Source: Dictyophora rubrovolvata
Taxonomy: Eukaryota; Basidiomycota; Agaricomycetes; Phallales; Phallaceae
NCBI GenBank assembly: GCA_029959195.1
Contig: CP114119.1
Coordinates: forward strand, 1,736,001 to 1,800,000
Length of the DNA: 64,000 nt
Direction: 5' to 3'
In this document: one piece after another, positions 560 through 55,000 of the stretch
Layout: every line of letters starts with the position of its first letter
How positions within the stretch are numbered: the first letter of the stretch is position 1
The notes under the pieces: model-generated
What the model was told of the DNA's origin: nothing
The model's database searches: none
What the model saw: the letters and a program-made list of their open reading frames with translations, nothing else
Made by a program: the position numbers and the translations under genes

Positions 560-2162
560 ATGTCGAAACAACAAGAAGCTCTACGATTCTTAGACGATCT
601 TGACTCTCTCAATGCCGATACTGTAGCAGTTACGATACCATCCAACACCCCTTCGTCGTCAGATGCGCAAGCAACAACGACGCAGGGAGCAACGATCAAT
701 CAGCAGTCAACAACAACAGCCCAAGCCCAAGCCCAAGCTGAATCTCAAACTCAGCCTGCGAATACAACACTAGGTGGAAACGAAGCAGACGCACTTGCAT
801 TCTTGGATGAAATAACGCAGAAATCACTCATAGCCTCTCAACCGTCGTCTTCGTCAACGTCAAGTGCACGGTCGACACCGCCTTCGATAGGCTTATCAGC
901 GGGTCGATCGCTGTCTTCTACGCCACGCACTGCGTCTAGGATATCTCTACGGAAAGGTGCTGATGGGAACGTTAGTCTCAGTCGGAGTGCATCGCCAGCC
1001 TTTGGAAAAGCAGAAGGTCCTGCTGCTGCTGCTACTACTACTACTACTACTACATCCACCAACAATAGTGGAGCGAATTCTTCTCAAGCTGCTGCGGGTG
1101 CAGGTGCGAACAGTACAAGTTGGGGATGGTCCTCTGTTTGGTCATCCGCTTCTGCGGCAGTTAAACAAGCCCGAACCGTGGTCGACGAACAAGTGAAAAA
1201 TCTCCCGGTTACCATTCCCAACGTCCCTATACCAAATAACGAACAAGCCAAGAAATGGTCAGAAGGAATGTTAGAATACGTCAAGAGTACTCAATTGGAT
1301 AAAATTGGTTCGTAATTCAACGTTTCTTTTGTAATGTTCTTTTCATAAGTTGATGTGGATCAACTGTGTAGGACAAGACCTCAAGTCTGTTGGTTTATCC
1401 ACGTTTACGGAAATTTTGAATGTTGTCGCACCGCCCATTGCAGAGCACGAGGTGATTGAGATATGGCTTAGCCATGATATGCGTGGTTATGATGGTGTGG
1501 AGTCTTTAGTTTACGAATGTATGGCTAAAGTGCGGATTTCTCTCTCTCTCTCTCTCAGTCTGTCTAATAACATTTTAGGTGCTTGAGCAAGTCGATGGCG
1601 GTGATCTGGTGGTCAATAAGGGGACGGAATCACGTCCCAAAGATAATATTGGGCCGGAAAGAGAGCTGGGGGGTGTAGAAGGATACGACGCCGCTCTGAA
1701 GCTAGCGCAGGTTAAATTCTCTCTTTTTAAATTGTGTGTTCTTATGCATGCGTGCTGAAACCATGATAGGCTAATATTGAAGATCTGATTAAAGCAAAAC
1801 CTGAACGACCACCGCGACAATCAAGTGCGACGAATCCGACGACGTATAGTTCAGTGTATTTACATATTCAGCCGTGTATAACGGATGGACAACTTCAATT
1901 CGTGTTACACCTGGCCTCGCCGTCGTATGGAATGGTTCATACAACTATAACGCAAGCGGTACCCCATAAATGGATTGTGGCTTTTGAGAAGGAAGATGGG
2001 AAAAACAGTGGTAATAACGGGGCGTGCGGATGGGTGGAAGATACATTGGTCGAGGTGCTGCGTGTTGGGATTGGGGTGATTGGACAAGAGTATTTAGCTG
2101 AGAGGATGGGCTGGTTGAAAGAGATGCAAGAAGAGGCCAAGGAGAAGACCAAGGCGGCTTAG
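560..2162 (+). CDS. MTC1: MTC1-like protein (maintenance of telomere capping 1 family)
   Basis: Four exons are inferred (560-1307, 1372-1529, 1579-1710, 1770-2162), joining in phase to about 476 aa. The N-terminus starts MSKQQEALRFLDDLDSL and repeats the theme as ALAFLDEITQKS, which is typical of the fungal MTC1/DUF5427 family. A Ser/Thr/Gln-rich low-complexity stretch follows (about residues 30-190). A Trp-rich segment (WGWSSVWSSASAAVKQA) and the conserved C-terminal half (VYLHIQPC, FVLHLASP) come next. In yeast, MTC1 is a cytosolic/vesicle-associated protein with genetic links to telomere capping; its biochemical role is unknown. A (TC)n run lies in intron 2. The stop codon overlaps that of the convergent gene downstream. 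Confidence 0.85.
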
Positions 2163-3895: not shown

Positions 3896-4710
3896 CAGAA
3901 AAGAGACCAGGAAAATGAAAATGAAATTATAAAAGAGAGAGAGTTGGTGGAAGCAGATCTACTGAGAGCGAGCGACGTTCCATCTTTGTTCTTGTGTTCG
4001 TTTCAATTTTGTTCTTTCGGCGTCGTCTTGTTTGTTTGTTCCTCTAATGTAACAGCCCTGTCATATTGTACACATTCATTCACCGGCATCCTTGCGTGCT
4101 TCTCTCCTATTTTATCCCAGTATTTAACATGCATCAAATCAATATTATATTATTATCTGTCTTCCCCCATACCCCCTTCGAGTCACCACTGCTTGCCGAG
4201 TGATATATCAACCATGTATAGAATATATAGAACATGCATGTCTTCCCCCCAACGTTCTACATACTTGTCGACTCGTCATTAATCAAAGATAACTACACGC
4301 ATCTTATGTAAAAAGAAAAACTTGGAACAATTAAAACACACATTTTTTGTGCTTTTTCGGTCGATTATTCACTCCGCTGTCTCTGAGCGCTTATACCTCC
4401 GACTCCGTCTCAGTCTTCGTTCAGTGTGCCCCTTCAAAAACGCGCCTCTCCTCCTCCTCCTCCTCCTCCTCCCTCTTCCTTTTTCTTCTCTTTCTCCCTT
4501 CCTCCCCCCCCTTTCCTTCTTCTTCCGTCCTTTCAATCCTCATTCTCTCTCTTTCCGACCTCTCGTCACGAACAGCAACGACCAAGAAACGAGCGCACGA
4601 ACCTCCTATCTCTCTCCCTAAATATCTGCCTATTCCGAATCCTTAAATTTTCTCGATCTCTCGATCTCTCTCAAAAAAATAAAGAGAAAGTATATTACAA
4701 ATTTCAAATC
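3896..4710 (+). other. Intergenic region and pyrimidine-rich leader of the Ras gene
   Basis: No gene recognised. From about 4380 to 4600 the plus strand is strongly C/T-rich, including a (CTC)n run at about 4448-4472. Such CT-rich tracts commonly lie just upstream of transcription starts in filamentous fungi. Long open frames here are low-complexity Ser/Leu/Pro and look spurious. Confidence 0.5.
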
Positions 4711-5671
4711 ATGGACAGCTGGAGAGTCGCTGTCTTGGGTGACGGTGGTGTGGGCAAAACCGCACTAGCCGTGCAAGTACGCATTGTCCGATCTCTCCTA
4801 TCAAAAACCTTAATCTAATTCATCAACCTTATTTCACTTTCGTGTTAATTTTTTTTTTTAAAAAAAAAAAACCAAACAGTTCACTCTCAATTGTTTCGTT
4901 GGTAAGTATTTCTGCAGTTTCTATTACATTGCCACCGCCTTACTATTTACGCCTCGCCTTATTTTTACAGAGGTATGTCATTTCATCATCCAATATCTCT
5001 ATCCTTCTTCTCCTATCCCAAACTCAAACTCAAATTCGTCGCCATCGTTATCTAGACATACGATCCAACCATTGAGGATGCCTACAGGAAACAAATGGTT
5101 GTGGACAATCGCATGTGCTTTGTAGAAGTAATCGATACAGCCGGTCAAGGTTCGTTATTTCCCTCAATTTCTCCACCGTAGAAATAGTAAAGAATAGTCA
5201 ATCATCATCATCATCGTTATTGTTATTATAGAAGAGTATGTGGCTCTACGAGATCAATGGATCAGAGAAGGTCAAGGTTTCCTCCTCGTATACTCAATCG
5301 CCTCACGTGTCACCTTCGAACGACTTGAGGTCTTTCGTCAGAGTATCTTACGTGTCAAGCCTCGACCAAAGCCGGTTTTTATCCTTGTTGGCAACAAGTG
5401 TGACAGAACTCAGGATCGTGAGGTGACACGTGAGGAAGGTATAGAAATGGCTCGTTACTTCGGATGTGATTTCCTCGAGACTAGTGCAAAGACGGCGGTC
5501 AACGTTGAACGTCTCTTCGCAAGTCTCGTTCGCAAGTTACGCGAGTCGAGGCAAGAGAATGGAGGACCATCCACCGGTCCTGTCGGTCCTTCCGGCACTG
5601 CCCCTTTACCCGGTGCCCCACCACCACAGGGTCAAAAGAAAAAAAGGAACAACCGATGTATTATCGTTTAA
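4711..5671 (+). CDS. Ras-family small GTPase with C-terminal CAAX box
   Basis: Five exons are inferred (4711-4776, 4880-4901, 4971-4972, 5056-5149, 5232-5671), giving 207 aa. All G motifs are present: P-loop GDGGVGKTA, effector loop [24 protein letters not shown] and ETSAK. The C-terminus has a Gly/Pro linker, a basic patch (KKKRNNR) and the prenylation box CIIV, so it should be farnesylated or geranylgeranylated and sit at the membrane. The effector loop is identical to Ras over YDPTIED, and GDGG in the P-loop resembles Ras2/Rsr1-type fungal proteins; the exact paralogue is not decided. Exon 3 is only the two bases AG, needed to make the Glu of [11 protein letters not shown]. Reading through either flanking intron breaks the frame. 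Confidence 0.92.
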
Positions 5672-7565
5672 AATATCCTTTTCCCCCTTTTTTTCTTTCA
5701 CCTTTCTCTCCGCTTCCTTTCCCACCTGGTGTTTTTCTTTTTGGCGCAACCTTTCCCTCGCACTCTTTATTTTTTCGCTCTGTTTAAAAAGGCATTTCAC
5801 GGCCGCTGCCCTATTCGCCTCCGCTCTCGCCTTTCCCCATTTAGAGTCTCTGTTCCATTTTCGGTTTTTCTCCAAGGCCCCTACATGTTTTTTTGACGGA
5901 TCTTTTTCTATTTGCCATATATCTCTGTTTCCATTTTCTTTCTTTCTTTCTTTCTTTCTTTCTGTCTTTTCTTCTTCTACCTGCGAGGATTAAGCTGTCG
6001 TCCTCTCTACATACCCTTTCCCCGTTGTGCTTGGCTGATCTATTTGATTTGAAGCAGAAAGAAAATGTACGGTTCCCTTTTTTTCCCACCTGTTTTTGTT
6101 TTCTCTAGTACTTTTTCCCTCATCACTTTCACTTCCATTTCATAAACTTCTGCCTTTTCCGAATACGAACGGATGAGCCCATTATCAAACCCGACTACGA
6201 GTCATCCCGAAAGGTTTCAAAAGAATTTAGTTTAAGTTTCTTCTTCTGGAACAACCTTTCCCCTCGTTTTTCCCGTTTGTGCTCATCGTTCCGACCGTAA
6301 CCTGCACCATTTGACCATCCTTTCCGTCGTTCACTCCCTGCTTTCTTCTTCCCCGCTGACAATCATGGCACGCAAATCGTACGTAGATATACATATGCAT
6401 AATCCATATCGAAAATATCATTTGGCTTATCATCGCATATAGGGTCATATTCCTCGTTCCTCCGTTGTACTCCTATCGCGCTGTCGTTTATCTTTCCATT
6501 CCGCCATATCGCTGCAATTGTAAAGATTATGCGTAGACAATCATCTCATGCATCGTACATTGTTTATATCACTGTACAATATCCCATCATCATCATCATC
6601 ATCTTCATTATCCTTCGATTCCGGTTTTATATCCTTGCTTTCTCTCTTTGTCCTGCGTCCGCGTGACCCTATATCATATCCTCCGATCCATTGCTACAAT
6701 TTCTCTCCCCCATCCCTTGTCACCTCTCCCCATCGTCCCTGGCTCGGATGACTGCTAGTATGACACATCCCGACATCCACTAGATGTCACTCGTCATCGT
6801 TTGTGTCCGTATAGATGACCGGGATGATTTTCTTGCGCGTCAAATGGTCTGTTTGTCTGTCACAGTCGTAATCTCCCTCTCTCCCTTTCTCTACTCATCT
6901 ATACCCTGCCAATATTTCCTCCCTTTTTTTCTCCCCCCATTCTGCGGTCGTGACGAGTCCTCCCGATTCCCGATGTATGGTGTGTTGTCAGTACCGGTTG
7001 GTGCTTATTAAACGGTCCCAAGTTTGATTCGAAAACGTTTTGTATGGTCTGAAGTTTCCCCGCCCCCGTTTTTTCCCTTTTTTCTTTATGTAAATATTCG
7101 ATGCATCATAAACAGAGTTGTGCTGGAAGTGAAGTGAGGTGTACCCGAGTGATTTTGAAAATTTTGTTATGGCACATCACAAGGATATCAACAAAAGAAG
7201 CACGTGATAAATTGACAGATGTAATCCTGAATCCATTATCCGCCTATACTACGCGGCGCTGACTTGAACCGTCAACAGCTGTCCGAAATTCGTTTCTCTA
7301 ACTTACCCCCTGCTCTTGTACTCAACTGGATTATACGTAGCCTGGTTTTCCACTAGTAGTCATACCTCTAGTGACATTGTCACTTTGAAAAGTACAGGTT
7401 CGTTCAATGATTTACATACAATTGCTGGCTTTATTACTTCAGTAATACTGACCTGCAACAAACAGCTCTGTCGAGTATTAGATTTGCATACTTAAGCTCC
7501 TATTACTAGAATAAGGATAAGCACAATAATACCCCCCCCACCCCGCTTCGAACGATTATCGAGGA
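5672..7565. other. Long gene-poor stretch after the Ras gene
   Basis: About 1.9 kb without a recognisable gene. The first 1.3 kb continues the C/T-rich strand bias and carries a (TTTC)n run, so open frames there are low-complexity. It may be a long 3' UTR of the Ras gene, an unannotated non-coding transcript, or regulatory DNA. The last 400 bp is the upstream region of the PXMP4-like gene, with a short poly-C run just before the ATG. Confidence 0.5.
5934..5963 (+). repeat. (TTTC)n microsatellite
   Basis: About seven TTTC units in the pyrimidine-rich stretch downstream of the Ras gene. Confidence 0.9.
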
Positions 7566-8807: not shown

Positions 8808-10904
8808 TTACACGTTTGTGGCCTTTTCATCCAGACTAACATCTATGATCTCCCCAATCCAAGCCATCAAAGCGGGATCACGCACTCGAACTTCTTGAAT
8901 TAACTTTCTTATCCCAGTAAACGCTTTCCTCCCCCTTTCACGACTCATTTCATCCTCTATAACATCCTTCATCTCCTCTTCAGTGTCCTCTTCCACCATA
9001 CCAGGAAAACCAAAGTGATCAGCGTCAGCCCTGGGCGCCGCATCATTCGATGCGAAAGAAGCACGAAACAATACTCGGATGATTAGCAGAGCAGTTAATG
9101 ACGTTGAAGGTGGATCGGCATTCGGTTTAGGAAAAACGACTTTTGACTCTGGCGGGGGCGGAACTGGTCTTTTTGTTGGAGTGGCGGAGGGATGGGGATA
9201 TGGTTCGAGCGGGAGCGTGATTTTTTCCATCTGAGAAGGGTGCCGCTTCGGTACTTCGGAGCTTGGTATATGAGTTAAGCTATGCAATTTTAAAACTGAT
9301 TTCGACGGTGCAGTGTATTGACAAGTCGCCCACTGACACGCCAAACCCGTGGAAATATTATCCGCGTTGTTCAGATGTTGAAGTACATGATCCCAAAGCG
9401 TCGTAGGTAATGTTAAATTGGTCGCGGTGCATGCCGAACGGTTCCACCGACATCGAAACGTTTCTTCTGTTACATCAACCATTTTTCGGGTTATTCCTTT
9501 GATAACGAAACGTTGCGGTTGCCCAGGTAAAACCATGGCTTGAGCTGTTGGAAATACTTGAGAAACGTTCTTGATAACCTCGGCAGCGGAAAGAAGGGGC
9601 TGAACATCAGCCCGTGGCGAGAAGGTATCGCGATATAGATTCCAAAATTCGACTTGTGTAACTTCTTCTGTATCCGATGCCAGGAATAATGAACGCATCC
9701 TAATGGTAGAGCTCAATACCACAATTGGAAAACGAAACATGCTGTCTTGAACTTACCATTCGGAGGACCTTTCGGGTTCAGCCAGTTTGGCTATTCGATC
9801 CAATTCCTCTGGAGTGGGCTCACACTGCTGTTTGACAATTGCAATAGCAGGAGCTGTTTTGGCAGGCTCGGGTAATAATTCTTCAGATACCAACTCTTCG
9901 TGCTGTTCATTAAGCAACAACGTCACCAGGATCTTCAATAGGCCTGGCATATTTGGTAAGAGAAGGAAAGACTTGACCATTGGTCCGTGTGAAACGTGTG
10001 CATAGATGTAATCTAGACAGGAAGAAATAAGGGGAGTGTCAGATAATAGTGGGAGATAGCGGATTGATGCATGTAAAGCCGGTGAGGTAGTGGTAACGTA
10101 ATTTGTATTTCGCGGATTTGAGATTATCAATGTAAGAGTTCGGAGAACCGTTATTACGAATGCTCTGTCATTCGACGTTTCTATGAGCCCCTCGAGAGGT
10201 GCTATCAGGGCGGAGGTGGTAAATGTGTTTCCGGTTTGCGGTTTATCAATAGGCAGACACAAAACAACTGAGTAAGCCAGATCAACGATGTGCAATAGGA
10301 ATTCAGAATTCATATCGGAGTCCGCTTTGAGGCGATGCAACGCGTTATGGATCAAACGCAAGGTCCGGGAATGCGTTGAAAAGAATTGAGCATTATCCCC
10401 GTTGAGAGACGCGTTTCGTAGAATGAAGATGGCTTCTAATGCATGCCTTCTTTGTTGAGCCAGCGTGGACGGCATAGAAAATATAGAATCCATGCGACAC
10501 AAATCAGCACCCCGCGCAACGTACCACTCAGGCCACTCGATGAGTGCATCGGTAAGACCGACGATATTCTTCAGAATGAATTGATCATTCCCCGAGAGTC
10601 TGCACATGCGTTCCAGAGCCCAATTCACTTCTTTCGGAATCCCCGAGCGCACAGAAAGCAGCATGCGATTGGTTGCTGCAGGCTCTGTATACCATCCTGT
10701 TGAGAGAGAGTTGCAGGTCAGATTGTTAGACGGTGAGATTCAAGGTATCTTGAGATAATTACTTTCATAATCATCGGGTAGACTTGGACGGGGTGGTGGT
10801 GGTGGTGGTGGCGGCGGTGGCGGCGGTAACGTATACGCAGGATAGGTCACTCCAGGCTTTTGTGCAGCTGGAGTTCGAGACGTAGGGCCAACTGCGTGAG
10901 CCAT
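8808..10904 (-). CDS. RSC9: RSC9/ARID2-like chromatin-remodelling complex subunit
   Basis: Three exons (10904-10763, 10696-9757, 9699-8808), about 656 aa. After a Pro run the protein reads RWYTEPAATNRMLLSVRSGI, the hallmark opening of the armadillo-like region in fungal Rsc9. A long helical repeat region (to about residue 360) follows. An RFX-type winged helix comes next (VTQVEFWNLYRDTF through RFVIKGITRKMVDV), then two C2H2-type fingers (FRCRWNRSACTATNL...H and CQWATCQYTAPSKS...H), and an acidic then helical tail. No ARID domain is seen, as in yeast Rsc9. The protein should be a nuclear DNA-binding subunit of an RSC/PBAF-type SWI/SNF remodeller. The start at 10904 is chosen because upstream in-frame Met codons add only basic residues. 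Confidence 0.88.
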
Positions 10905-11230
10905 TTCTCGAGAGAAAATCGTGACGCGTGACGTCACAGCGCGAATAAATCTCATCACAGGTCGAGTCACGTATACTAGACTCTTGTAGTAAGCGTTGTG
11001 TGGAGAGTATATATAATATGCATATATATGTATGTATACGTGCTATGTACGGTTAATCTCAACAGCTCTCAACAAAAGAACACAAAAGGAAAAGGAAGAA
11101 AAGAAACAAAATAAACTATAGTAGGCTGGCTTGACGCGTTCTCCAAAGGTTTCAAAACAATGAGCATGGTTACGATCACTCTCAACGATTCTTCGACAAC
11201 GATTCTTTGAGTAGTATCCATCTCTGGAAA
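10905..11230. other. Intergenic region between RSC9 start and the next minus-strand gene
   Basis: About 330 bp holding the RSC9 upstream sequence (including a TATATAATATGCATATATATG tract near 11008-11030, overlapping likely core promoter elements) and the 3' flank of the gene beyond. No gene seen. Confidence 0.5.
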
Positions 11231-14200
11231 TTAGGATGGAAACATGTAAGGCGTTGTTGGGTACCCCGCATGAGGAGGCATTGCATGATAGCCTTCATAC
11301 CCGCGGGGGACCATCGTACCTCGATTCGCTCCAGTAGGTAGAGCGTACATAGTCTGCGGTTGACCTGCGTGTCCTGGGGGTGGAGGTGGTGGCGGAGAGA
11401 ACATGGCAGGGTGCATGGTCTGCATCGGAACGCCATGCGGGTGGGTGGGCGTGGCATGCGCTAGATGGGGAGACCGCATATGCATATTCTGCATATTCCT
11501 CATATCAGGCATCTGCGCATGTGCATATAAACTTCCTGCTTGCATTGCAGGTGGTGCTCCGGGTATTGACCCGTGACCCATCATAGCCATTCTGTGGGGT
11601 ACCATCTGATTCGGGGTAGCTCCGGAAGGAGGATATACCATTTGTGTCGGTTGCGGGGGAGGACCGGTGGGACGTAAATAGCTCCCATGCTGCGACGTGA
11701 CAGGAAGAGGAGGCGTTGAAAGCCACACACCATTCGCAACAGAAGGCGAAGGCCCGTTCACTGGGAGTCGCGGGTGAAGGACAGGACTATCTACACCTGT
11801 TGCATACATTAGCGTCGGGCTGGGTGAATGACCCATGACCGCGTGAGAATGGTATGGAGGGTAAGACGGACGAGCCGGGTGAGATAATGGCATTGAATGA
11901 TTGGGTCTGTGGTATTGGGGAAATATCGAATTCTGAGGATACGTTGGAGCGCGGGTTGCTGGGGATTCAGGAACTTGCTGAAATGCGCGAGCAACTTCTT
12001 GTTGTGAGAGACGCGTCGGTGGTGCTGGTGCTATCATCGGCGGCGGCGTTTCCCCACCCTCAGACTTCATATCTTGCACTGTCGACGGTATGGACGGTAG
12101 TTGCTCATCCGTGATATCCTGAAGAGAATTCGAGGTACTTCCCGTAGACATAGAAGTAGGCTGCGACCAAACTGCCTTCAGATGTTCGGGATCCGGAACC
12201 CGACGTGTAGGAGAATCTTTTACGACCGGGAAAGCCAATCCCTTCCCCCAAGGAGAAGTTGTATGTGGTGTCGACGAAGGTGGGGTCCCAGGACGCGTGG
12301 CCTATTGAGAGTGTGTTAAATGAGAGCGCAAAACCGGACAGATGAAAACTCACAGATTCCTCCGAACTTTTGCTCCCAGGCTTGCTGGCAATTAAGCGAG
12401 GCAACTCATGAGGAGTTGAAGTAAAAGTCTGAGAAGGCAGTGACTTTAATTCTGTCTTACTGGGTTCTGGTGAACTATTAGTGATCGGCACCTTGACAGC
12501 TTGGTCCGAAGGCTCAGAAGTAAAGGGGTCCAGTTCACTATTCACAGTAAAACTTGGTAACAGTGTACTCGCAGTTTGCTCTCTGATTACAACGTCTCTT
12601 GTCCGAAAGAAACTAACTGGCTCACGCAACGCTTTAATATCTGTAGGAGGCAGAGATACGTTGGCTGCAAGCGGGCCTTCAAAGCTTGTTGGTATTTCCT
12701 TTTTAGTCGGAGTGAGCTGAGGCAGTGGAGTAGAGGGATCGGGAGGTGGTGATCGGCTGATTGTGATGAGGTTTTCATTAGAAATGACGGGAATAACACG
12801 AGATTGCTCAGTTCTTAATGAAATGGAAGGAATGGCCGATCCACGCCAAGAAGATACGTTGAATACGTCCTGTGTGTGCTCTGTCGAAACTGGTCTGAAT
12901 GTCGATGGACCGCTTGGCAGCTTGATTTTTATACCCATAGAAGTGACTAATGTTGTAGAATCGGCACTGATATTTTTTGGGGACGTTTGGAAAATCTTCG
13001 CTTGCTGAGAGCTCAGTGGAGGTAGCACAACACGTAGTTTGCCACCTTTGGGAAGATGGTTCTTTTTGTGAAAAATTTCATCCCGCGATAGATCTCGTTT
13101 ATTCATACCTTCCACCGGCGGATCCCAAGAAAGGATATCCCACCTAAAAGGGGGATAAGGGAGATTCCAATAGTGAATCTGTTTCCTTTGTAACGGTTCT
13201 CGGATTTGACAAACCCGAGGAATTTTGACTGTATGAGTCTTCCACACAGGTTTCGGTGAAGACGGTGGTGGAATACAAGTAACAAACTCCTCCAATTTTT
13301 CTGGCGTCAATGACCGTCGTTGTGGCGCACCGTCATGAAGCGTGCGCCAACCATCAGGAGCACTTTGCCTCCCTTTGTCCTTGGCTGTCAATATATCATG
13401 GGATTGCATGCCATCCAATGCTCCTTTGATACGCGACATCGTGTCAGTTAATGCCGACATAGAGGCTTCTTTGAAGTGAGAAGCTCGAGGCGATCGCAGA
13501 GCTGAAAGAACAGGGGATATTTGAGAGTTATTGAGGACATGATCTCCTTGAGACAATCGCTTCGAGGGAGACAGTAAAGGCGATTGGCTATTTTTGGGAT
13601 CCATCGTTGGTAATTCTGTTTCAGGGGAAGACTCTGTCGAGAAAATAGGTATTGTCTGTGTGTGTAACCCGTCTACCGAGGAAGTTAATTGAGCTTTGAC
13701 TGTTGGTCGTCTCCACGACAACACTTCTGTCTTTGTTTCGTGTTCTACGAAATCGTCTTGGAAGAAATCGCTGGCCACCGGTCTATTTGAGAGCCTGGAT
13801 AGCACTTTGGGTAGAGCGCGTGGCTCTGGTGAAGCATTTCCCAAAAATTTACCTAAATCTTCAAAGTCGACAACTTCGACTTCCTCGTCTGGCTTTAATA
13901 ATAGTTCATTTGTGGGCGCGGATGGGAATGAAGGGACAAGAGGATTGTCAGAAGAAGGAAGAAGGGAGGACGCAGTTTGCGAATCCGGCCTAGCCTCTGC
14001 TTTCCCTTCCGTACTCTGCACTTCTGTTCCAACGCTTTTTGGAGGTGCTTTGCTTCTCCAAGATTCAGCTTGGTTGGCCACTGATGACATTGTTGGTTTC
14101 CGAGAAAGCAGAAGAGGAGGAGCTGAAGAGTGGTCTGTAGAAAGCCGCCTTGTCAACTGTTCTTGACTAACTTTGTGAGATAAGGTGGAGACGACTGTAG

Positions 14201-16723
14201 AAGTCTTAGCTTCTGTTTGTTCATCCTTAACAAAAATCATTCTCAATTAGTACCACGTAAAATGAAGACACAAAAACCTACACTTCTCAATTGATTCGAT
14301 GGTTCTGAGGTGGTCTGACTTTCATGCTTTCCCTCCATAGCACGAGCTAATGCCTCAGCCTTTTTTCGAGCTCTCTCGGCGGCTTCTTCTCTACGTCTCT
14401 CCTCTTCATTTAATTCCTGCTTGCGCCTTCTAGCACGTTCATTAGCCAAATGCATGGCACTTTTTAGCAGAACATTTTTGTCTACGTCTTCAGAATTCTC
14501 TACGGGCTGTGAAGCGGCCAATAATGATTTCTCTAAAACAGGCGAATGGAAAGACTGTGAAGAAACGGTAGGCGAGACGGCCGAAAAATTGGACTGAAAG
14601 TTATCTCTTTCCACCCCTCTGGGAGAAATGGGAGTGATAAGAGGTGGGCGGAGGTGATTTGGACGATCTCCATCTCGTTCGCGTGTCAAAGTCGGAGGAG
14701 CAAGTGCACCTTGCAAATTATCACGGTCGCCAATGATATGATGAGGCACCCATTTGTCACGCCCACGAGACCTATCTCGGATTGATCCTGTTGCACTACT
14801 CATGCTTTCTCTACGTCTAGACTCCCATGAACGTTCGTCGTTTTTCACCGAAGGCGGACCGCGAGGAGGGGGGCCATCTACCCAGTGATTTCGTTCCGCA
14901 CCAGGTCCAGTCCCCCGCAAAGGTCCTCTGTTCTTGAAGTCGGTACCAGGAAGGCCTTTCTGCAGAAGTTGGATATTCGATGAATATGTTGGCGAAGTAA
15001 ATGCCGGTTCCCTTTGTCGAGGCACAAAAGGTGCTTTAGATTCGGACAAAGGTTCCAGTCTATTCAAGCGTTCGTTGAATAAGACTCGCGACGTTGGTGA
15101 AACACCGTCATGGGGCGAATGTGTCTGATTTAAAGCTTCCGATGTGGGATGTGATGAGACAGATAGTTGTAGGGAAGGTTTGTTAATCGAGGGTTGTCCA
15201 ACAGCAAGCTCGCTTTGTCTAGGCCAATTTCTGCCCATATCTTCGCCAAATCGTTCCTCTTTTGCGACTGGTGGCCCATCGGGTTCGAAGGGCGTTATCG
15301 ATCGTTCTGGTGGTATTCCCTGAGAGGAATTTGGTTTCTGTTCAATTTTGTATTGGGTGCCATCACCAAATTCAATTACACCGTCGAAATCTTCGCTATC
15401 CTCGTCTGACATCTATTTATCAAAGGGTGAAATGTCGATTATCATGCAACGTCAATACTACATACCTCATCCCATCGCGCATTAGCGTCTAAATGGGTCC
15501 CTCGAAAGGCAGCAGCAGTTTCGTTTATGGCGTTTTGCTGGGCAACCTTATGCGCCGCCGCCGCCGTGTCTGCCTCCGTTTGTCCTTTCCCTGGCTTTCC
15601 TTTACGAACTGGAAGAGGAAAAAAACCGTTTAGAAACAAGTGGAAGAAATGAAGAAACTCCATAATGGACGTACGACTTTGAGTTTGCATGCTATGTACA
15701 GCTTCAGCTGCTGTTGGAAAGTCGCTCTTATTATCCAAGCCCGGGAGACTTCTTCCAGCTGGTTTGGATGACGGTGCTGTATACTTCGCCCAAACCGGTT
15801 TACTACTCTGTGAACCTGTGGAAACTGGAGCCCCATTCGGGGCGGGGGAGGTTCCTGAGCGATGCTTGATGGCTGGGTAAGAATTTGCTGTGGATTCGTG
15901 TAAAGGTGGTTGGGGTGACGTAGATGGCGGAGTCGGAGTCGTGTTGCTGTTTGTTGTTTGTCCTGGACGTAGCCATCCACTCGTAGAGGCAGACGAAGGT
16001 TGGGGCACAGCCGTCAATTTAGCAGTCACGAGACGAGAAGATACAGGCCGGTCAAAGGATGGTGATCGTGCTGAAACAAAGATTTTAGTAAAAAAAAAAG
16101 GGTTAGTATATATAGATATGTAGATATAACGCCATACAGTTTGGACTGATGCCCCGATGTTGACTGGAAGAAATCAAAGCGGAATTGGTATTTGAGAGAG
16201 AACCTGTTACTGAAGAAGAACCGGACATAGATGACGTTTTTTCCAGAAATCGCTTGGTAATGTTTACTGAAGTAAAACGCTTTGTTTGGGGAGCATGTAG
16301 AGGATGGGTAACGACGGCATATTGTTGAACTGGGCTGTTGCTCACTGTTGAAGGAATGCTACTTGGGTGTTCTGTGTTTGGTTCTGTGGCATTGTCCTTT
16401 GGCTTCTCTGTGATTTCAGTATTCGCGGAGAAATAGGGTGGATCTACTGCGTGTTGAATTACGGCAGGAGGAGAGGTCTCGAGACTGTTTATTTTTGCCT
16501 CGTCAGAGCTCAACGATTGTGAGAAATCGCGGCTGGGTTGTTGGCTATCTTCTGCATGGGGAGGCTGAGTCACTTCGTGGAGATGACTAACGGACGCTTC
16601 AAGGTTTTCGATAACTTCGTGCTCGCATTTTTCCAGACTTGTGGCTGCCCAAGCGACGGTCTGAATGGGGAGGACAGCTACTGGTGCGACGAGACTGGGA
16701 TCAGACGTTTGGGTGTCCGCCAT
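11231..16723 (-). CDS. Large intrinsically disordered protein, PRRC2/BAT2-like (tentative)
   Basis: Six exons (16723-16138, 16070-15675, 15608-15466, 15412-14282, 14225-12354, 12301-11231) join in phase to about 1,730 aa. Landmarks in order: TKRFTSVNITKRFLEK near residue 170; VSSRLVTAKLTA; SDFPTAAEAVHSMQTQS; AFRGTHLDANARWDEMSDED then FDGVIEFGDGTQYKIEQK (about residues 350-395); a charged coiled coil ANERARRRKQELNEEERRRE; a Trp-rich patch (HYWNLPYPPFRWDILSWDPP); and a Pro/Met/Gly/His-rich C-terminus. The DFPT-type motif, the D/E-rich block and the ERARRRK coiled coil recall the BAT2 N-terminal region of PRRC2 proteins, which bind RNA and stress-granule factors; this assignment is inference. 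The bulk is low complexity. Met-16738 is an alternative start. Confidence 0.72.
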
Positions 16724-18715: not shown

Positions 18716-19828
18716 TTAAAAGCGAAGACGTTGTGAGGAAGCGCGAGCCCAGTTTCCCCTTCGGGTGTTAATGTGAGGCGTGGTAGAATAGAAGCGGGGC
18801 GTGGAAGGGGTAGGAGTAGGGGGGGTCAACGTTACGCCTGGTTTGCAGCCGAGCATAACACCACCAGTCAAAACCGTAGTCTTGCCACCGTCATAGGGGG
18901 TAACCTCTTTCTTGGTAACATCAATTATAACTTGAGACTGAGATAATTCCTTGTGAGACTTCCCAGAACACATGTCATTAGAATCGTCATCGTCGTCGAT
19001 AGAAACAGGAGCTTGCATGATCAAAGCTCCAGCTGGAAGGAGAACCGAATTGGCCTTGCGAGAATGATTGAAAGGGATACGGGAACCCGGGCGAGAACGT
19101 GATGGTATGGAAGACGTATACCCAGAGTTCGCAGCTGTTCCAGTGCTCTCCACGGAGCTAAAGGAAAGGCCGGAATCAGAAGAGCGAGAACTGGAGCGAG
19201 AGTGTCCGCTTGCAACGGATAAGAAGCTATTGATAGATGTGGTGGAGACCGCGGATTCTGGTTCACTCTCAGTAAGTTGGGAAGGAGTGAAGGTATTATT
19301 ACGTGGTACTGGGGGGAATTGATTTAGGATGGGTGTGAGCGATGTTGGGGCACGTATTTGGTCATTAATCATGTTGAACAGTTCGTCTTCGTCTTCGTCA
19401 ATGATGCTTTGAGCCACGGTGGGTTTTTGGTTGGAGTTGACTCGAGTTGGAAGACAAGCAGACCAAACAATGTAGGATTTGTTGAGACCAACGAGACGTA
19501 CAAAAACGCAACCGGGGTCAATGAAGAGGTCCATCTCGACGTTCCCAAGACACATCATCCATTCGTCCCAACTAATACGAGCGGATTTACAAGCATAGTA
19601 GATGGGACGAGGGGGTACGCCATTCGGGATGAGAGTAAGGCAGCGTCGGCCTGAGCCACGATGGGGCTCGCTAGGGAACCAATTGTTTTGGTACTGTTTC
19701 GCAAGGTTGCGCTCAAGAGTAAAATGCAAGAGGTCTATCGTCGTAGCTGAATAGCGGCCAATGAGAGAACGGGTTAAGAAGGCAATGGCGTGGTAAAGTG
19801 CAAAAGTGAGTTCGGTGGAAGCAGACAT
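18716..19828 (-). CDS. BTG/Tob-domain (anti-proliferative) protein
   Basis: Single exon, 370 aa. Residues 1-125 match the BTG fold: N-terminal helices (LTFALYHAIAFLTRSLIG), then NWFPSEPHRGSGRRCLTL, an Arg/Cys-rich turn and the closing segment MDLFIDPGCVFVRLV, which is the box B-like WxDPxEVxxR region in animal BTG/Tob. In animals these proteins bridge the CCR4-NOT deadenylase (via CAF1) to mRNA and regulate proliferation. A similar role here is inference. The rest is Ser-rich and disordered, with an acidic DDDDD run and a Thr/Pro tail, resembling the long C-termini of Tob rather than short BTGs. No introns in the coding part, unusual for this window. Confidence 0.85.
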   Translation of the reverse strand: MSASTELTFALYHAIAFLTRSLIGRYSATTIDLLHFTLERNLAKQYQNNWFPSEPHRGSGRRCLTLIPNGVPPRPIYYACKSARISWDEWMMCLGNVEMDLFIDPGCVFVRLVGLNKSYIVWSACLPTRVNSNQKPTVAQSIIDEDEDELFNMINDQIRAPTSLTPILNQFPPVPRNNTFTPSQLTESEPESAVSTTSINSFLSVASGHSRSSSRSSDSGLSFSSVESTGTAANSGYTSSIPSRSRPGSRIPFNHSRKANSVLLPAGALIMQAPVSIDDDDDSNDMCSGKSHKELSQSQVIIDVTKKEVTPYDGGKTTVLTGGVMLGCKPGVTLTPPTPTPSTPRFYSTTPHINTRRGNWARASSQRLRF

Positions 19829-39046: not shown

Positions 39047-42034
39047 ATGCTCACTCGTACCTCTCGCACATTTACATTCAAACTCGGTCCTGCCGTAATT
39101 CGCAGTCTCAGCACATACATTCCACATAAAATTCAATTTATCTCCAAACAAACTCAATGTCGACTCCGTTGTTCCAGTGCCGCATTTCTTCCTGCCTTGG
39201 AAGAACCGGAAACCACGGCATCACCACCGGTATCATTGCCTCAGGAGCTTTTCCAACTAGCCAAGGAAGTTGAAAAGACCCTTGAAGAAAGATCATTTCT
39301 CCAATTTCCAGAACTTTACTCCTCGTTCCGTCTCGTCGCTCTTGACTGTTCCCGGAACACCCTCATCCCAACCAGTTCGCTGGCTGCTTTATTTCCATCC
39401 CTCGACCAGTTTTACGATACAGCTCGGACGCGTCTGTGTCGGAATTCTCGCAAGGAATACGCGGCTCTTCACGTTATGATGTATAAAGACGCGTTTATCA
39501 TATTCCGCGATAGTTTGTCTCTGAAACACCCTTTACTTTTCGCGAGCGAGTCATTCGGATCTTTACTTGACCGGAATACCATCTCTACCGCTAATAACGT
39601 GTTTGAGCATATCAAACACCTTATTGGCATGCTTCCGACCGAAGTGAATGCGTCTTTATCCCTCAAAACCATGGAGAATTGGATGGAGACACTTGGGTCC
39701 AGTTCTGACTTGAATGCACTAACGCTTTTACAACGCATGGTTCTCAGTCTTCCGGACTGTCTTGGAATTCAGCCGTCTCGCAAGCACCATCATTACGTTC
39801 TTAAAGCTCTCCTTAAAGCCAATCAAGCTGGTCGAGCATGGCGATGGTTAGAAAAAATGCAGTTCCAAAAGCATTCATTGAATGAGGGTGAAAAACGGCA
39901 CTGGTGGGCTAAACTGCCTCACCTACCCTGGTTCAATAGCGATGATCCTGTCCCGCCTTCGTCTTCTATCACGTGGACTAGGGCTCGGACCCAGGATTAT
40001 GATTTATTCCTTACATATTTTGCGAAATGTGGAGATTTCATGTCGGCGCAATTGCTTATGAAACAGATGTTCATTCTAGGTCCGCCGATTTTGCCTGGAC
40101 AGCGGTCATGGCATCTTTACCTACTTGCCGCTGTTTCCCAAGCCAAGTCGAATGTTTTTTCTGTTCTCAAAGAGATGTCGGATGCCGGATTCAATGTTAA
40201 TCTAACGATTCTTGTATCGCTTTCTGGTCGCGTGGATTTGCAATCGTGGGTTTCCGAGGACATACTTTCCCTGCTTCGTTCGGAGGGATCCCAAGGAAAG
40301 CCGGAAATAACTGGAGAGAAGGCCGTATTAGATCTTCTCCCTGATTTCAAGCCCGATCCTCTGCATGCAGAAGTTCGAAAAGTAGAAGTGAAAATTCCCC
40401 CTCATTTAAAGCGACTTCCCTCTCCTGACAGATACGCTGCTTCCATGGATGGTGGTTTGACCGACTTGCCTTCGAACCAAGCTCACGCACTACCAACAAG
40501 TGAAGAGTTCGGTCTCTCGTTAAACCCTTTCCACGCTGCGTTCGAGAAACCTGTTCTCGAGAAAATGAATAGTCAAGACGTTGAAGTCGCAACTCCGAAA
40601 GACTCAGAAGAGCTGCAAGTAGCTTTTATTGCAGATCCCCATTTTTCGACCAATAGTGAGGTGGGCGCTGACAAGCTCAGACGCAATCTCCTCAAAATAG
40701 CTCAGACACCGAACCCGGTTAATACCATACGAAGTTATAATGCGTACATCAGTCTTCCAGGCAGCAGACGTTTCGACATCGAACTTGGTAGTGCTTTAAT
40801 CCGAGGTTTATGTCGGAACACACTTAAAGCACCTTCAAGACGAAATGTGCTGCATGCCGTCAAGATGTATAAAGATCTCTTAGCATCGGGCCTGGGCTCA
40901 TCCTCCCCATCATTTTTCACTCCGTCGTCCCGAGACGAATTAAAAATCGATCCTGCCAAGGAGCTAAAACATGTTTATTATATGCTCTTGAGAAACTTGA
41001 CTGCCCCACCCACGACTTATTCTTCAGGTGCTGAAGCCGTCGAAACTCAGGAACGGTGTTCGGAAGATATGCGCTATCTCTTGAATGAGATGAAAATTCG
41101 CGGGATTACCCCCGACTCGCGGTTAATTTCCCCTATTATGCTCCTTCAGTGGCGCAGTACTGGCAGTCATGACGAGGCTCTGCAGTTTTACATATCATTT
41201 ATTTCAGATATTGAATCCTCTCGGCCCTCTTCAGACGCAGGCACGAAAGTTCAATTAATGGATCTTGGTTCTTTCAGGTCTATCTTGAACTCGTTTGGGC
41301 AGCTTTCTTTTCAAAATGCGCCTATTACCCCAGCACGGCTATGGCATGTTCTTCTCTCACACATATGTGCAAGAGGATATATTTCAACTTCCAAGGATTA
41401 CGCCCTATACATTAACAGCCTTGTATCTAAAAATATATCGCCACTTGCTCTGCGCTACGTATCGCTCGGAATGGATCCACCCGAAGAGGAAGAAAACATG
41501 GTCAAATCTATGTACGACTCTCTGAAATATCTATTCCGTCAGATTACGATTGACATTCACATTACGCCGGACGCTGTCTTATTCAATACTCTTATGGACG
41601 CATTTCAACGCGTTGGTGCATTTGACGATGCCCTGCAAGTTCTTAATTTGAGTTGGCTGACTGGCCAAGTCGATAATGTTACGCCAATTATCATGTTTGA
41701 TGCGTGCGGACATGCCAAACGTCCCGTAGATGCATATCTAATTTGGAATATGCTTGTTCGACGTCGATGGAAGTTCGATAAACGGACGTTGGACACATGG
41801 GTCGAATGTCTTTGCCGTTTGGGATATGTCGATCAGGCTTGCAAGTTCGTGTGTCTGTACATGGGTAAAGAGCATGGCGAATATGAAACCGTTGAAGATA
41901 CTAACCCCGATATCAACACATGCCTCATTTTACTCAAGTTCTCTTGGAACTTTGGCCAGAGTCTGGAAGTCAGGGAAAGGATCAAGTCGCACCTTCCCCA
42001 CATTTGGAAAGAACTGTCAGCGAGATACATGTAA
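39047..42034 (+). CDS. Large PPR-like mitochondrial protein
   Basis: A single intronless exon encodes 995 aa. The N-terminus (MLTRTSRTFTFKLGPAVIRS) is rich in Arg, Ser and Thr with no acids, as in mitochondrial presequences. The rest is alpha-helical with scattered PPR-like helix pairs, such as YDLFLTYFAKCGDFMSAQLLMKQMF, SRLISPIMLLQW and PDAVLFNTLMDAFQRVGAFDDALQVL, the last close to a perfect PPR unit. PPR proteins bind organellar RNA and control its processing, stability or translation. A specific target cannot be given. Being intronless is unusual next to its intron-rich neighbours. Convergent with the glycine decarboxylase gene. Confidence 0.78.
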   Translation: MLTRTSRTFTFKLGPAVIRSLSTYIPHKIQFISKQTQCRLRCSSAAFLPALEEPETTASPPVSLPQELFQLAKEVEKTLEERSFLQFPELYSSFRLVALDCSRNTLIPTSSLAALFPSLDQFYDTARTRLCRNSRKEYAALHVMMYKDAFIIFRDSLSLKHPLLFASESFGSLLDRNTISTANNVFEHIKHLIGMLPTEVNASLSLKTMENWMETLGSSSDLNALTLLQRMVLSLPDCLGIQPSRKHHHYVLKALLKANQAGRAWRWLEKMQFQKHSLNEGEKRHWWAKLPHLPWFNSDDPVPPSSSITWTRARTQDYDLFLTYFAKCGDFMSAQLLMKQMFILGPPILPGQRSWHLYLLAAVSQAKSNVFSVLKEMSDAGFNVNLTILVSLSGRVDLQSWVSEDILSLLRSEGSQGKPEITGEKAVLDLLPDFKPDPLHAEVRKVEVKIPPHLKRLPSPDRYAASMDGGLTDLPSNQAHALPTSEEFGLSLNPFHAAFEKPVLEKMNSQDVEVATPKDSEELQVAFIADPHFSTNSEVGADKLRRNLLKIAQTPNPVNTIRSYNAYISLPGSRRFDIELGSALIRGLCRNTLKAPSRRNVLHAVKMYKDLLASGLGSSSPSFFTPSSRDELKIDPAKELKHVYYMLLRNLTAPPTTYSSGAEAVETQERCSEDMRYLLNEMKIRGITPDSRLISPIMLLQWRSTGSHDEALQFYISFISDIESSRPSSDAGTKVQLMDLGSFRSILNSFGQLSFQNAPITPARLWHVLLSHICARGYISTSKDYALYINSLVSKNISPLALRYVSLGMDPPEEEENMVKSMYDSLKYLFRQITIDIHITPDAVLFNTLMDAFQRVGAFDDALQVLNLSWLTGQVDNVTPIIMFDACGHAKRPVDAYLIWNMLVRRRWKFDKRTLDTWVECLCRLGYVDQACKFVCLYMGKEHGEYETVEDTNPDINTCLILLKFSWNFGQSLEVRERIKSHLPHIWKELSARYM

Positions 42035-52008: not shown

Positions 52009-55000
52009 TTAAAGCTTGTCGTAATAGTTGTCGAGAGGTGGGATTTCAGCCTGCGGCATAGATTAGTTAAAGGATATCAAGGAAAGCAAAATAAGTCAAA
52101 CTACCTTAAGACCCTTGCGAACTCTGATTGAAGTAACAAGCTGTTCAAGTTTGGAGCCCTTTTCAGTGGGAGCTGTAGAACAGTAATGGGTGAGGTATCC
52201 ATATATTTTTGTTACAGAAGAGAACGCACATCCAGTCATAAGTTCCCAGTGGTCAAAGACGCACTGTGGGAAGGCTTGTCCAGCCGTTGAACCACGGAGA
52301 TCAGCGGTGAAACCGAATGACTCCATGACAGGGAGATAAGCCTTAACGGTGAACATGGGCGTTCCCGGGCGTTGTTCTTCACTGAATACTTGTCCGCGAC
52401 GCTTATTCAAGCAACTGTAGATACCACCAATGGCATTCTCGGGACATTGGATTTCAGCTATTTCGAAGTAAGGAAATGAAGACCAAAAAAGAAAAGAAAA
52501 CGCACCGAGATATACTGGCTCATGCAGGCCGGGAGTAGCCAAAAGAGTAGCAGCGTAGCAGACGCGACGACATGTGGGAATGATTTGACCTCCTCCACGA
52601 TGGATCGCATCAGCATGCAACTGCAAAACAGTTAAAATGATAATGTAAGATTAAATAAACATCCAATAAACATACAGTGACATCCAATATGTTGAATCGA
52701 ACTCCACGCATGTTCTCTTCGGCGCAAACGCCTTCCTTTGTGGCCCATTGGAAAGCGGCCACGCACGAATCCTTGATTTCGTTCAAATACTGCACTCCTT
52801 TGGTAACGTCTACCAACAGGTTGGGACCGGTAGTCTCTGGTCCGAAGCACCATATTTTACGCGCATCAGTGACATCCCAACCGAAGTCATCGGCTAAGAC
52901 ACGAGCACGAACTTTGGCATCATCACGAGGGTTGATCTGGCCTTTTTCTATGGCAAGAGAAAGTTCCTCATCAAGGGGCATAGCCTTGCAGTACAACCGA
53001 TTGTGTTTGTTTTGAGATTTGGACAAGGCTACAATCGAAGACTCCGCTTTGACGGTTTCACGGTACCCGACGACTGGGTCGGATTTCTTTAGCGGGACAC
53101 CGGCATGGTCTTCTTCCAGATCCTAATAAGCAAGGCATTAGAAACAAATGTAAAATATCGCAGTATAAAGCTTTACCTTCAAGCAAATTTCCAAATGAAG
53201 CTCACCAGCACCGGCGACAATGTGTTCACCGGATTCATTGATCCATGTTTGCACACACGGATCCGACTTGGATAAACGCTTCAAGCCTTCGACAAGTTTT
53301 GGCAAATCAGCTGCATTCTTGACTTCCACGGCAACTTGAACGACAGGCGAGACGGAAAACTTCATGACCTTCATGTTGTGAGCTGTCTCCGATGTTGTCA
53401 AGGTACCGCTCTTGAGCAAGAATTGATCAATTCCGACAAGCCCTACAATGTTACCGGCAGGACAATCTTCAATAGGTTCAACGTAACGACCCATCATCAA
53501 AACAGTACGCTGTACGGCTTTGACGAACAGATCATCCTTCTTGCCTGGAATATAATTTGGTCCTTGAATACGGATTTTAGGACCAGCTCGCACAGTTCCG
53601 GAAAAGATACGACCAAACGCGTAGAAACGTCCCTTATCGGAAGTAGGCACCATTTTTGAGATATAGATGACAAGAGGGCCGGTGGGGTTGCAATCACGAA
53701 TACCAATGGCGGACTCATCATCCATGGGTCCTTCATAAAGAGTCTCTACACGATATCTTTGAGCAGAAGCCGGAGAGGGAAGGTTAATGACAACCATCTC
53801 CAAGAGAGAATCACCAGCAGGTAAGAATTTACGCATGATGGTTTTGAGAAGAGGTTTTCCTTCCTGCTCTCTCTCTTCAGCGATCAGCTTAACTTCAAGC
53901 TTCTCAAGCATGGTGTTTACTTGATCCTTTTTGAAATTCATTACGGCATCGAAAATCCTGAAGATGGGGTCCAAAACGAACATGTTGAAAGCACGTTCAA
54001 GAACATTACCGTCGGCATCGGTCGACTTGGTAGTCCACTTCTTAGTCTTCGGGTTGAAAAAGTTGTCACCCCACAGCTTCGCCATCATCTTGTCCTTATC
54101 GACACCGAATTTCTTTGCGTATCTCGTGGCAAATTGCCGCAGAGTAAACGCCCAACCATGCAATCCCGAACCAAAGGCGACAGTGCCTCTGTCGGGGTAA
54201 ACTTGTACATCTCCGAGGGCGGCGTCATGGTAAGTTGAAATAATAACGTTAACTGATTCGATAGTACGAGAGAAAGATTGGAACAGGTCCTCCTTGGAAA
54301 CCTGGAGTTCAAGAAGAGCACGATCCACTTTGTTAATGACAACGACAGGTTTGATACGCTCGGCAAGAGCTTGGCGAAGCACGGTTTCTGTCTGTACACA
54401 GACACCCTCAACACAATCGACGACGACTAAGGCACCATCAGTTACACGAAGGGCCGCGGTAACTTCAGATGAGAAGTCGACGTGTCCAGGAGAGTCAATT
54501 AGGTTAATGAGGAACTCGTTGCCTAGCCATTGAAGTGAGAAAGAAAAACCAGTGGTGCAAACAAAATTGATCAGCCTACCCAATGTTTTCTGCTTAATAG
54601 CTTCTACATCTTCGTCGGATATTTGAAAGTACATCGAGACGGCAGTTGATTTGATAGTAATACCACGTTCTTTTTCATCTTCTCGAGTGTCCGTAAATCG
54701 CATATCACCAGCCTTTGCAGCAGCAATAATACCAGCTTTCGAGACCAGTGAATCGGTAAGCGTAGATTTTCCGTGGTCAACTTAAGTAAACAAAGTTTTC
54801 AGGATGGATGAGAGCCAGCAATCGACAAGATGCATACCATGTGCAATAACACTCATATTCCGGATATTTGTAGGTCTATCCATGAGGCTCCGAATTTGAT
54901 CTGAAGTATTGAATGATGAAAACAAAAAAAAAACAGACATGAATACCCTTTACGTGCCTACAGTGAAGTTACTATATGCTGGTCAGTTTGCTGATAGCAT

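What the first reader, a model, noticed from the sequence alone, without database searches (positions are those of the whole stretch)
4880..5149. Two-nucleotide internal exon in a Ras GTPase gene
Exon 2 ends GTT G (4901) before GTAAGT, and exon 4 starts ACA TAC GAT (5056) after CTAG. Joining them directly breaks the frame. A two-base AG (4971-4972), flanked by TTTTTACAG and GTATGT, supplies exactly the missing bases and gives [11 protein letters not shown], matching the Ras effector loop. The two flanking introns are 69 and 83 nt. Exons this small are extremely rare and would require coordinated splicing of two introns with almost no exon definition. The microexon sits in the functionally critical effector loop, so skipping it would frameshift the protein.
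Basis: partly seen in the sequence, partly recalled or inferred. Interest (0 to 1): 0.85.

Follow-up and report, generated by a model that had tools for sequence, protein, structure and literature searches.

The report
Two-nucleotide exon in mushroom Ras gene
In a fungus that is likely a stinkhorn relative, a Ras switch-protein gene yields the conserved protein under the usual splicing rules only if one exon is just two letters long, and public gene models from 14 orders of mushroom-forming fungi lack or alter residues at that same spot, so this tiny exon is likely ancient, widely shared and overlooked.

Summary
A Ras gene at 4711-5671 gives the conserved switch-I peptide [16 protein letters not shown] only if a 2-nt exon, AG (4971-4972), lies between introns of 69 and 83 nt. 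Among canonical GT-AG structures joining exon 2 to exon 4, exactly one gives that peptide, here and in a diverged copy on another contig. Shuffled sequence holds even a minimal frame-restoring site in 0.2% of trials. Public gene models break at this codon: 67 of 97 organism-named proteins seen are altered there, in 14 Agaricomycete orders, against 1 of 108 ORFs from unnamed contigs. Two of the three searches were seeded with altered models, so this is no prevalence; unseeded, it is 4 of 32 and 0 of 88. The commonest alteration, loss of exactly Val-Glu, is the only single-intron reading that keeps exon 2 here. Six altered models fit the microexon's own splice sites. The exon is probably conserved across Agaricomycetes and spliced one intron after the other. 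No RNA read was available; splicing order is inferred. One-nucleotide exons are known in plants and Fusarium, so this is a new, probably deep-rooted member of a known kind.

The parts
4711..4776 (+). Ras exon 1 (codons 1-22, P-loop GDGGVGKT)
   Evidence: translation and alignment with homologues
4777..4879 (+). intron 1, 103 nt, GT..AG
4880..4901 (+). exon 2, 22 nt, FTLNCFV + G of codon 30
4902..4970 (+). intron 2, 69 nt, GTAAGT..TTTTTACAG; if retained it reads through in frame without a stop
4971..4972 (+). exon 3: the predicted 2-nt microexon AG, completing codon 30 (GAG, Glu30)
   Evidence: only canonical solution giving FVETYDPT; chance 0.2% or less
4973..5055 (+). intron 3, 83 nt, GTATGT..TTATCTAG
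5056..5149 (+). exon 4, 94 nt, TYDPTIED... to DTAGQ
5150..5231 (+). intron 4, 82 nt, GTTCGT..TTATAG
5232..5671 (+). exon 5, 440 nt, to CIIV and stop TAA (5669-5671)
   Evidence: Pfam Ras match
4898..4903 (+). GTTGGT, the weak upstream donor whose use would delete Val29-Glu30 in frame; the alteration seen in 44 of the 67 altered database models

Best explanation
This Ras gene is predicted to contain a two-nucleotide exon, AG, that is likely spliced into every productive mRNA by removing its two flanking introns one after the other, and that likely dates from early in the evolution of the Agaricomycetes. Shown: the gene anatomy; the single canonical solution that gives the conserved peptide in two gene copies; the pattern of alterations in public gene models at this codon. 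Inferred: each flanking intron (69 and 83 nt) is recognised by intron definition. The U1 site of the microexon's donor (positions -3 to +6, 4970-4978) and the acceptor AG of the upstream intron (4969-4970) share G4970, so they probably cannot be occupied together and the introns must go in sequence. The donor reads GAG|GTATGT in either state, because the -3 base is G4970 before intron 2 is removed and G4901 after it. The AG itself supplies the -2 and -1 bases of the donor consensus. Skipping AG would give a 35-residue dead end, probably removed by nonsense-mediated decay, so inclusion should be constitutive.
For: (1) Coordinates, frame and 207-aa product. (2) Enumeration: 5 frame-keeping canonical structures in the window and 6 in the copy on contig C7; exactly 1 in each gives FTLNCFVETYDPT, the 2-nt exon. 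(3) Chance 0.215% for a minimal site, 0.01% with good sites, 20,000 shuffles. (4) The C7 copy keeps ..TTTTCCAG|AG|GTCTGT while its flanking introns changed length to 81 and 99 nt; its protein is under selection (dN 0.024, dS 0.206, 204 codons). (5) Intron sizes: 12 introns of four Ras-type genes here that do not flank the microexon are 48-103 nt and the four that do are 69-99; a single intron would be 154 and 182 nt. (6) Database models: 67 of 97 organism-named proteins altered at this codon, 44 lacking exactly Val-Glu there (43 plus P0197), 14 lacking exactly the 8 residues of exon 2 + microexon; 107 of 108 ORFs from unnamed jgi, lgn or ena contigs intact. (7) Eight genera hold both an intact and an altered species, e.g. 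Schizophyllum, Suillus, Trametes. (8) Five of the 7 irregular models read x-Glu-Thr-Tyr-Asp with an x that fits ..YAG|AG in all five (rough background 0.42 to the fifth power = 0.013, picked after the fact), and a sixth, Pyrrhoderma's FVE-VR-TYD, fits G|AG|GTNMGN. (9) Two ORFs from unnamed contigs, 95% and 87% identical to this protein, read FVETYDPT uninterrupted.
Against: No RNA read across these junctions could be examined. The ORFs from unnamed contigs are only presumed to be transcripts. Two of the three protein searches were seeded with altered models and only 120 hits each were listed; in the unseeded one 28 of 32 organism-named proteins are intact, and intact ones could come from genes that lost the introns. 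The C7 copy is weak evidence by itself, since its introns are 87-91% identical over aligned columns anyway, and its microexon donor is weaker (GTCTGT). One irregular model (P0141..VVTYDPT) shows no sign of the microexon. Intron 3 has no clear branch-point match by eye.
Confidence: 0.92

Rival explanations
1. There is one long intron with a non-canonical 3' end (4902-5053, GT..CT), so that the AG before ACA is exonic; it would give the same GAG codon without any microexon.
For: The translation is identical, because the two missing bases equal the acceptor dinucleotide; TTATCTAGACATACG is the same in the C7 copy.
Against: GT-CT introns are not an established spliceosomal class (recalled). As single introns the stretch is 154 nt to the AG here and 182 nt in the copy, against 48-103 for the 12 introns of four Ras-type genes that do not flank the microexon. 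The internal YAG|AG|GT would have no reason to persist, yet both copies have it and six models from Agaricales, Russulales and Hymenochaetales fit it.
Confidence: 0.03
2. The real product lacks Val29-Glu30: a single 158-nt intron uses the upstream donor GTTGGT at 4898.
For: It is the only single canonical intron after exon 2 that keeps the frame, and 44 of 97 organism-named database proteins have this form (two of three searches were seeded towards such forms).
Against: 0 of 108 ORFs from unnamed contigs have it. Species of the same genus have the intact form in seven genera with this alteration. GTTGGT is a poor donor beside GTAAGT four bases downstream. It would take two residues out of the start of switch I.
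Confidence: 0.03
3. The site is a recursive-splicing ratchet (zero-length exon) rather than an exon: intron 2 ends at 4972 and the regenerated donor is then used.
For: AG|GT is juxtaposed at 4971-4974, and AGAG offers a second acceptor two bases downstream (sequence).
Against: The product is frameshifted and ends after 35 residues. A ratchet is hard to motivate in a 154-nt stretch.
Confidence: 0.01
4. The microexon is real but alternatively spliced, with skipping or intron-2 retention used to make inactive or altered Ras as a control of signalling.
For: Three other outcomes stay open in frame here: VE-less, 24-nt skip, and intron-2 retention; similar forms occur as database models.
Against: The database forms are explained by gene finders that do not model 2-nt exons; no skipped form was seen among 108 ORFs from unnamed contigs.
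Confidence: 0.1

Closest known systems
1-nt exons of APC11 (Arabidopsis) and VPS55 (land plants)
   Same: Ultra-small, frame-essential exon between two introns; conserved among land plants; missing from annotations (passages of PMC4674806 and PMC8831610 seen).
   Different: Plant genes, 1 nt instead of 2, confirmed by RNA-seq and RT-PCR; here fungal, 2 nt, inside the Ras switch I codon 30, without reads.
1-nt exon of Fusarium CYP621A P450 genes (PMC12940212)
   Same: Fungal; inferred from exon phases and an over-long apparent intron; conserved among orthologues (first of three parts of the text read).
   Different: Ascomycete P450 in Fusarium species, confirmed with SRA reads; this one is in a core signalling gene, and altered models point to it in 14 orders of another phylum.
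Microexons of 2-10 aa in Phanerochaete P450 genes (PMC1184071)
   Same: Agaricomycete, small exons and frequent small introns (passages seen).
   Different: The shortest exon reported in the passages is 6 bp.
Microexon switch in Trichoderma Xlr2 (PMC11121469)
   Same: Functional microexon in a filamentous fungus (start of abstract and passages seen).
   Different: Inclusion there changes with glucose; the Ras exon is predicted to be constitutive.

Membership tests
Ultra-small (1-3 nt) constitutive internal exon | 1-3 nt exon between canonical GT-AG introns | tested here: met
   by sequence: AG at 4971-4972; GTAAGT..CAG and GTATGT..TAG
Ultra-small (1-3 nt) constitutive internal exon | needed for frame and for a conserved peptide | tested here: met
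   skipping stops after 35 aa; single canonical solution for FTLNCFVETYDPT
Ultra-small (1-3 nt) constitutive internal exon | conserved in homologous genes | tested here: inconclusive
   DNA: only the C7 copy. Proteins: alterations in 14 orders, indirect
Ultra-small (1-3 nt) constitutive internal exon | spliced reads spanning both junctions, no substantial skipping | not testable with these tools
   no RNA data; 107 of 108 ORFs from unnamed contigs intact is suggestive only
Ras family small GTPase | P-loop, switch I YDPTIED, DTAGQE, NKCD, TSAK, C-terminal CaaX | tested here: met
   all present in the 207-aa product; best solved-structure matches are Rap1 and Ras proteins; Pfam PF00071
Recursive splice site (zero-nt exon) | juxtaposed AG|GT whose use leaves no base and keeps the product | tested here: not met
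   AG|GT is present, but a zero-length exon gives a frameshift and stop

The most novel reading that the evidence does not exclude
A 2-nt exon has been kept at exactly two bases in codon 30 of Ras throughout the Agaricomycetes, and its inclusion is a control point: the in-frame alternatives (loss of Val29-Glu30, loss of exon 2 plus microexon, or an in-frame intron-2 insert) are made on purpose to tune switch I and Ras output during mushroom development.
Probability: 0.1. Interest if true: 0.88.

Novelty: new member of a known kind. Interest (0 to 1): 0.66.

Why it matters
If confirmed, this is a 2-nt exon inside the switch region of one of the most studied proteins, kept across a class of fungi. 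It gives a natural series of orthologues in genetically tractable mushrooms for asking how a spliceosome includes an exon too small to be bound, and in which order the introns go. It also means that many public Ras sequences from mushroom-forming fungi carry a false deletion or insertion in switch I, which would mislead structure, evolution and signalling studies.

Tried and rejected
Direct join 4901-5056, zero-length recursive exon, exon-2-only skip and intron-3 retention all break the frame. Other microexon positions: the site at 4969 is the only AGNNGT in the 154-nt stretch, and no other single internal exon up to 60 nt gives the conserved peptide. A real Val-Glu deletion was considered because 44 named proteins have it, and rejected because of intact sequences in the same genera and 107 of 108 intact ORFs from unnamed contigs. 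The two other Ras-type genes looked at in this genome (C2, C1) read codon 30 without an intron and have one at codon 37 instead; other, more distant small GTPases listed were not checked. Scans for related DNA in viral contigs and genome contigs gave no relative. Rfam gave no match above its thresholds in the window. Ten paper searches listed no paper whose title or shown abstract reports a 2-nt exon in Ras or in an Agaricomycete; several listings were capped (for example 20 of 2,199, 30 of 50). Subscription papers, including older cloning papers on mushroom ras genes that I only recall, are mostly not held, and the Schizophyllum Ras1 paper PMC3675993 is not held, so priority is not settled. 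A back-translation test on P0132, an ORF that reads through the introns, allows AGAGGT at exactly one place of its 39 residues; suggestive, not counted as proof.

Full report
What was checked. The window is part of contig C3 of an unnamed fungal genome of 28.24 Mb in 11 contigs. The gene on the plus strand at 4711-5671 encodes a Ras GTPase. With exons 4711-4776, 4880-4901, 4971-4972, 5056-5149 and 5232-5671 (66, 22, 2, 94, 440 nt) and introns of 103, 69, 83 and 82 nt it gives 207 residues ending in CIIV, a prenylation-type motif. The nearest organism-named proteins are from Clathrus columnatus (Phallales) and Hysterangium stoloniferum (Hysterangiales), so the source is likely a phalloid; the species was not identified.

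Is a 2-nt exon forced? Exon 2 ends one base into codon 30 and exon 4 starts at codon 31. With the start of exon 2 held fixed, I enumerated canonical GT-AG structures to exon 4 with introns of at least 40 nt and at most one internal exon of up to 60 nt. Five keep the frame and DPTIEDAYR; one gives the conserved FTLNCFVETYDPT, and that is AG at 4971-4972. The only single-intron solution uses the weak donor GTTGGT at 4898 and deletes Val29-Glu30. Dropping AG alone stops the protein after 35 residues. In 20,000 dinucleotide shuffles of 4902-5055, a minimal AG-A[AG]-GT with room on both sides appears in 0.215%, with good splice sites in 0.01%, and the observed string never; any AGNNGT appears in 8.3%.

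A second copy. A duplicate on contig C7 (125927-127282, minus strand) matches window 4365-5751 at 82%, that is the gene with some 350 bases upstream and 80 downstream; nothing else of the 3-kb query matched there. It keeps the same five-exon layout including AG, with introns 2 and 3 of 81 and 99 nt and donors GTGAGT and GTCTGT. Its protein is under selection (dN 0.024, dS 0.206; of 204 codons 34 differ, 23 of them synonymously). The same enumeration again finds exactly one structure with the conserved peptide, of 6. Because its introns are still 87-91% identical over aligned columns, the copy alone would not prove much. Two other Ras-type genes of the genome (C2, C1) have no intron at codon 30 but one at codon 37. 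Their 8 resolved introns are 48-72 nt; introns 1 and 4 of the Ras pair are 79-103; the four introns beside the microexon are 69-99; without the microexon the single introns would be 154 and 182 nt.

Public proteins. Three protein searches listed 120 hits each (of 1,313, 425 and 422), together 205 distinct proteins. Of 97 that carry an NCBI or UniRef name with an organism, 30 are intact at this codon and 67 are not: 44 lack exactly Val-Glu (one of them, P0197, has one more changed residue nearby), 14 lack exactly FTLNCFVE, which is exon 2 plus the microexon (24 nt), 2 read VG, and 7 are irregular. Of 108 known only from jgi, lgn or ena contigs without an organism name, 107 are intact and 1 (P0132) reads through the introns. 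Two of the three searches were seeded with altered proteins, so 67 of 97 is not a prevalence; in the unseeded search 4 of 32 organism-named and 0 of 88 other proteins are altered. The unnamed contigs are mostly about 1-3 kb, up to 7.9 kb, by the listings. An uninterrupted full-length ORF there most likely means spliced RNA, and P0132 suggests that introns are not modelled out in that source, but this is inference.

Altered models come from Phallales, Hysterangiales, Geastrales, Sebacinales, Sistotremastrales, Atheliales, Gloeophyllales, Hymenochaetales, Corticiales, Thelephorales, Polyporales, Russulales, Boletales and Agaricales (15 of the names looked up, 14 orders, all Agaricomycetes; Geastrales rests on a VG model). 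Eight genera have an intact and an altered species: Trametes, Phanerochaete, Suillus, Boletus, Paxillus, Pholiota, Schizophyllum (these seven with the Val-Glu loss) and Serendipita (8-residue loss). Armillaria and Lentinula each show two different alterations in two species (P0144 and P0187; P0152 and P0170). One hidden structure that gene finders cannot express explains this better than repeated true loss of two switch-I residues. The 30 intact named proteins do not tell whether their genes have the microexon correctly annotated or have lost the introns.

Some alterations fit the hidden splice sites. Of the 7 irregular models, five (Armillaria ostoyae P0144, Amanita polypyramis P0146, Hericium alpestre P0150, Lentinula guzmanii P0152, Cyclocybe aegerita P0153) carry foreign residues, probably intron sequence, and then read x-Glu-Thr-Tyr-Asp; in all five x is a residue with a codon NYA, as ..YAG|AG|GT..AG|ACA demands (rough background 0.42 per residue, 0.013 for five, chosen after the fact). 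A sixth, Pyrrhoderma noxium P0151, reads FVE-VR-TYD, as if a model had found the acceptor and AG and then run six bases into the next donor. The seventh, Hypholoma P0141 (..VVTYDPT), shows neither. These are readings of proteins, not of DNA.

How it likely works. Both introns are short and have ordinary ends, so each can be paired across the intron. The acceptor AG of intron 2 (4969-4970) and the U1 site of the microexon donor (4970-4978) overlap, so they are unlikely to be bound at once; removal in sequence is the natural reading, as the authors suggest for the 1-nt exon of Arabidopsis APC11 (passages of PMC4674806). The sequence suits this: the -3 base of the donor is G whether intron 2 is still present (G4970) or gone (G4901), and AG supplies the -2 and -1 consensus bases. 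The order of removal is not known. Glu30 lies at the start of switch I; that residues 30-31 set effector choice between Ras and Rap is recalled, not tested.

Known or new. One-nucleotide exons are reported in plant APC11 and VPS55 (passages of PMC8831610; [quoted passage not shown] Phanerochaete P450 genes were reported with exons down to 6 bp (passages of PMC1184071). None of the titles and abstract starts listed by my ten paper searches (several listings capped) reports a 2-nt exon in Ras or in an Agaricomycete. It is thus, as far as seen, a new member of the ultra-small exon kind, remarkable for its place and its probable age.

Limits. No RNA evidence from this species, no DNA from other Agaricomycetes, orders looked up for 15 names rather than for all 67, and hand sorting of sources.

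Noticed in passing
G000:C7:125927-127282 (L005): A diverged second copy of this Ras gene (82% DNA identity to window 4365-5751), with no further match of the 3-kb query around it; it kept its introns, hence it is not a retrocopy.
   Followed up: partly
P0129: A 'ras protein' filed under the willow Salix suchowensis starts like an Agaricomycete Ras (96% over the first 52 residues of the Clathrus model) with the same 8-residue gap; probably fungal contamination of a plant assembly.
   Followed up: no
P0131, P0133, P0173, P0200: Mycena Ras models include diverged ones with the same 8-residue gap (P0131, P0133, P0173), one with an altered P-loop (P0173); M. alexandri has at least two (P0133, P0200). 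They may be duplicates or pseudogenes.
   Followed up: no
window 8808-15412 (-): A run of long minus-strand ORFs (310, 303, 335, 713, 389 aa) without a Pfam match at E 1e-4.
   Followed up: no
window 560-1312 (+), 18719-19828 (-), 39047-42031 (+), 53141-54703 (-): ORFs matching DUF5427, the BTG family, PPR repeats, and a translational GTPase with EF-Tu and EF-G domains.
   Followed up: no
window 4440-4530: Strongly CT-rich stretch with CTC repeats some 180-270 bases upstream of the Ras start codon.
   Followed up: no
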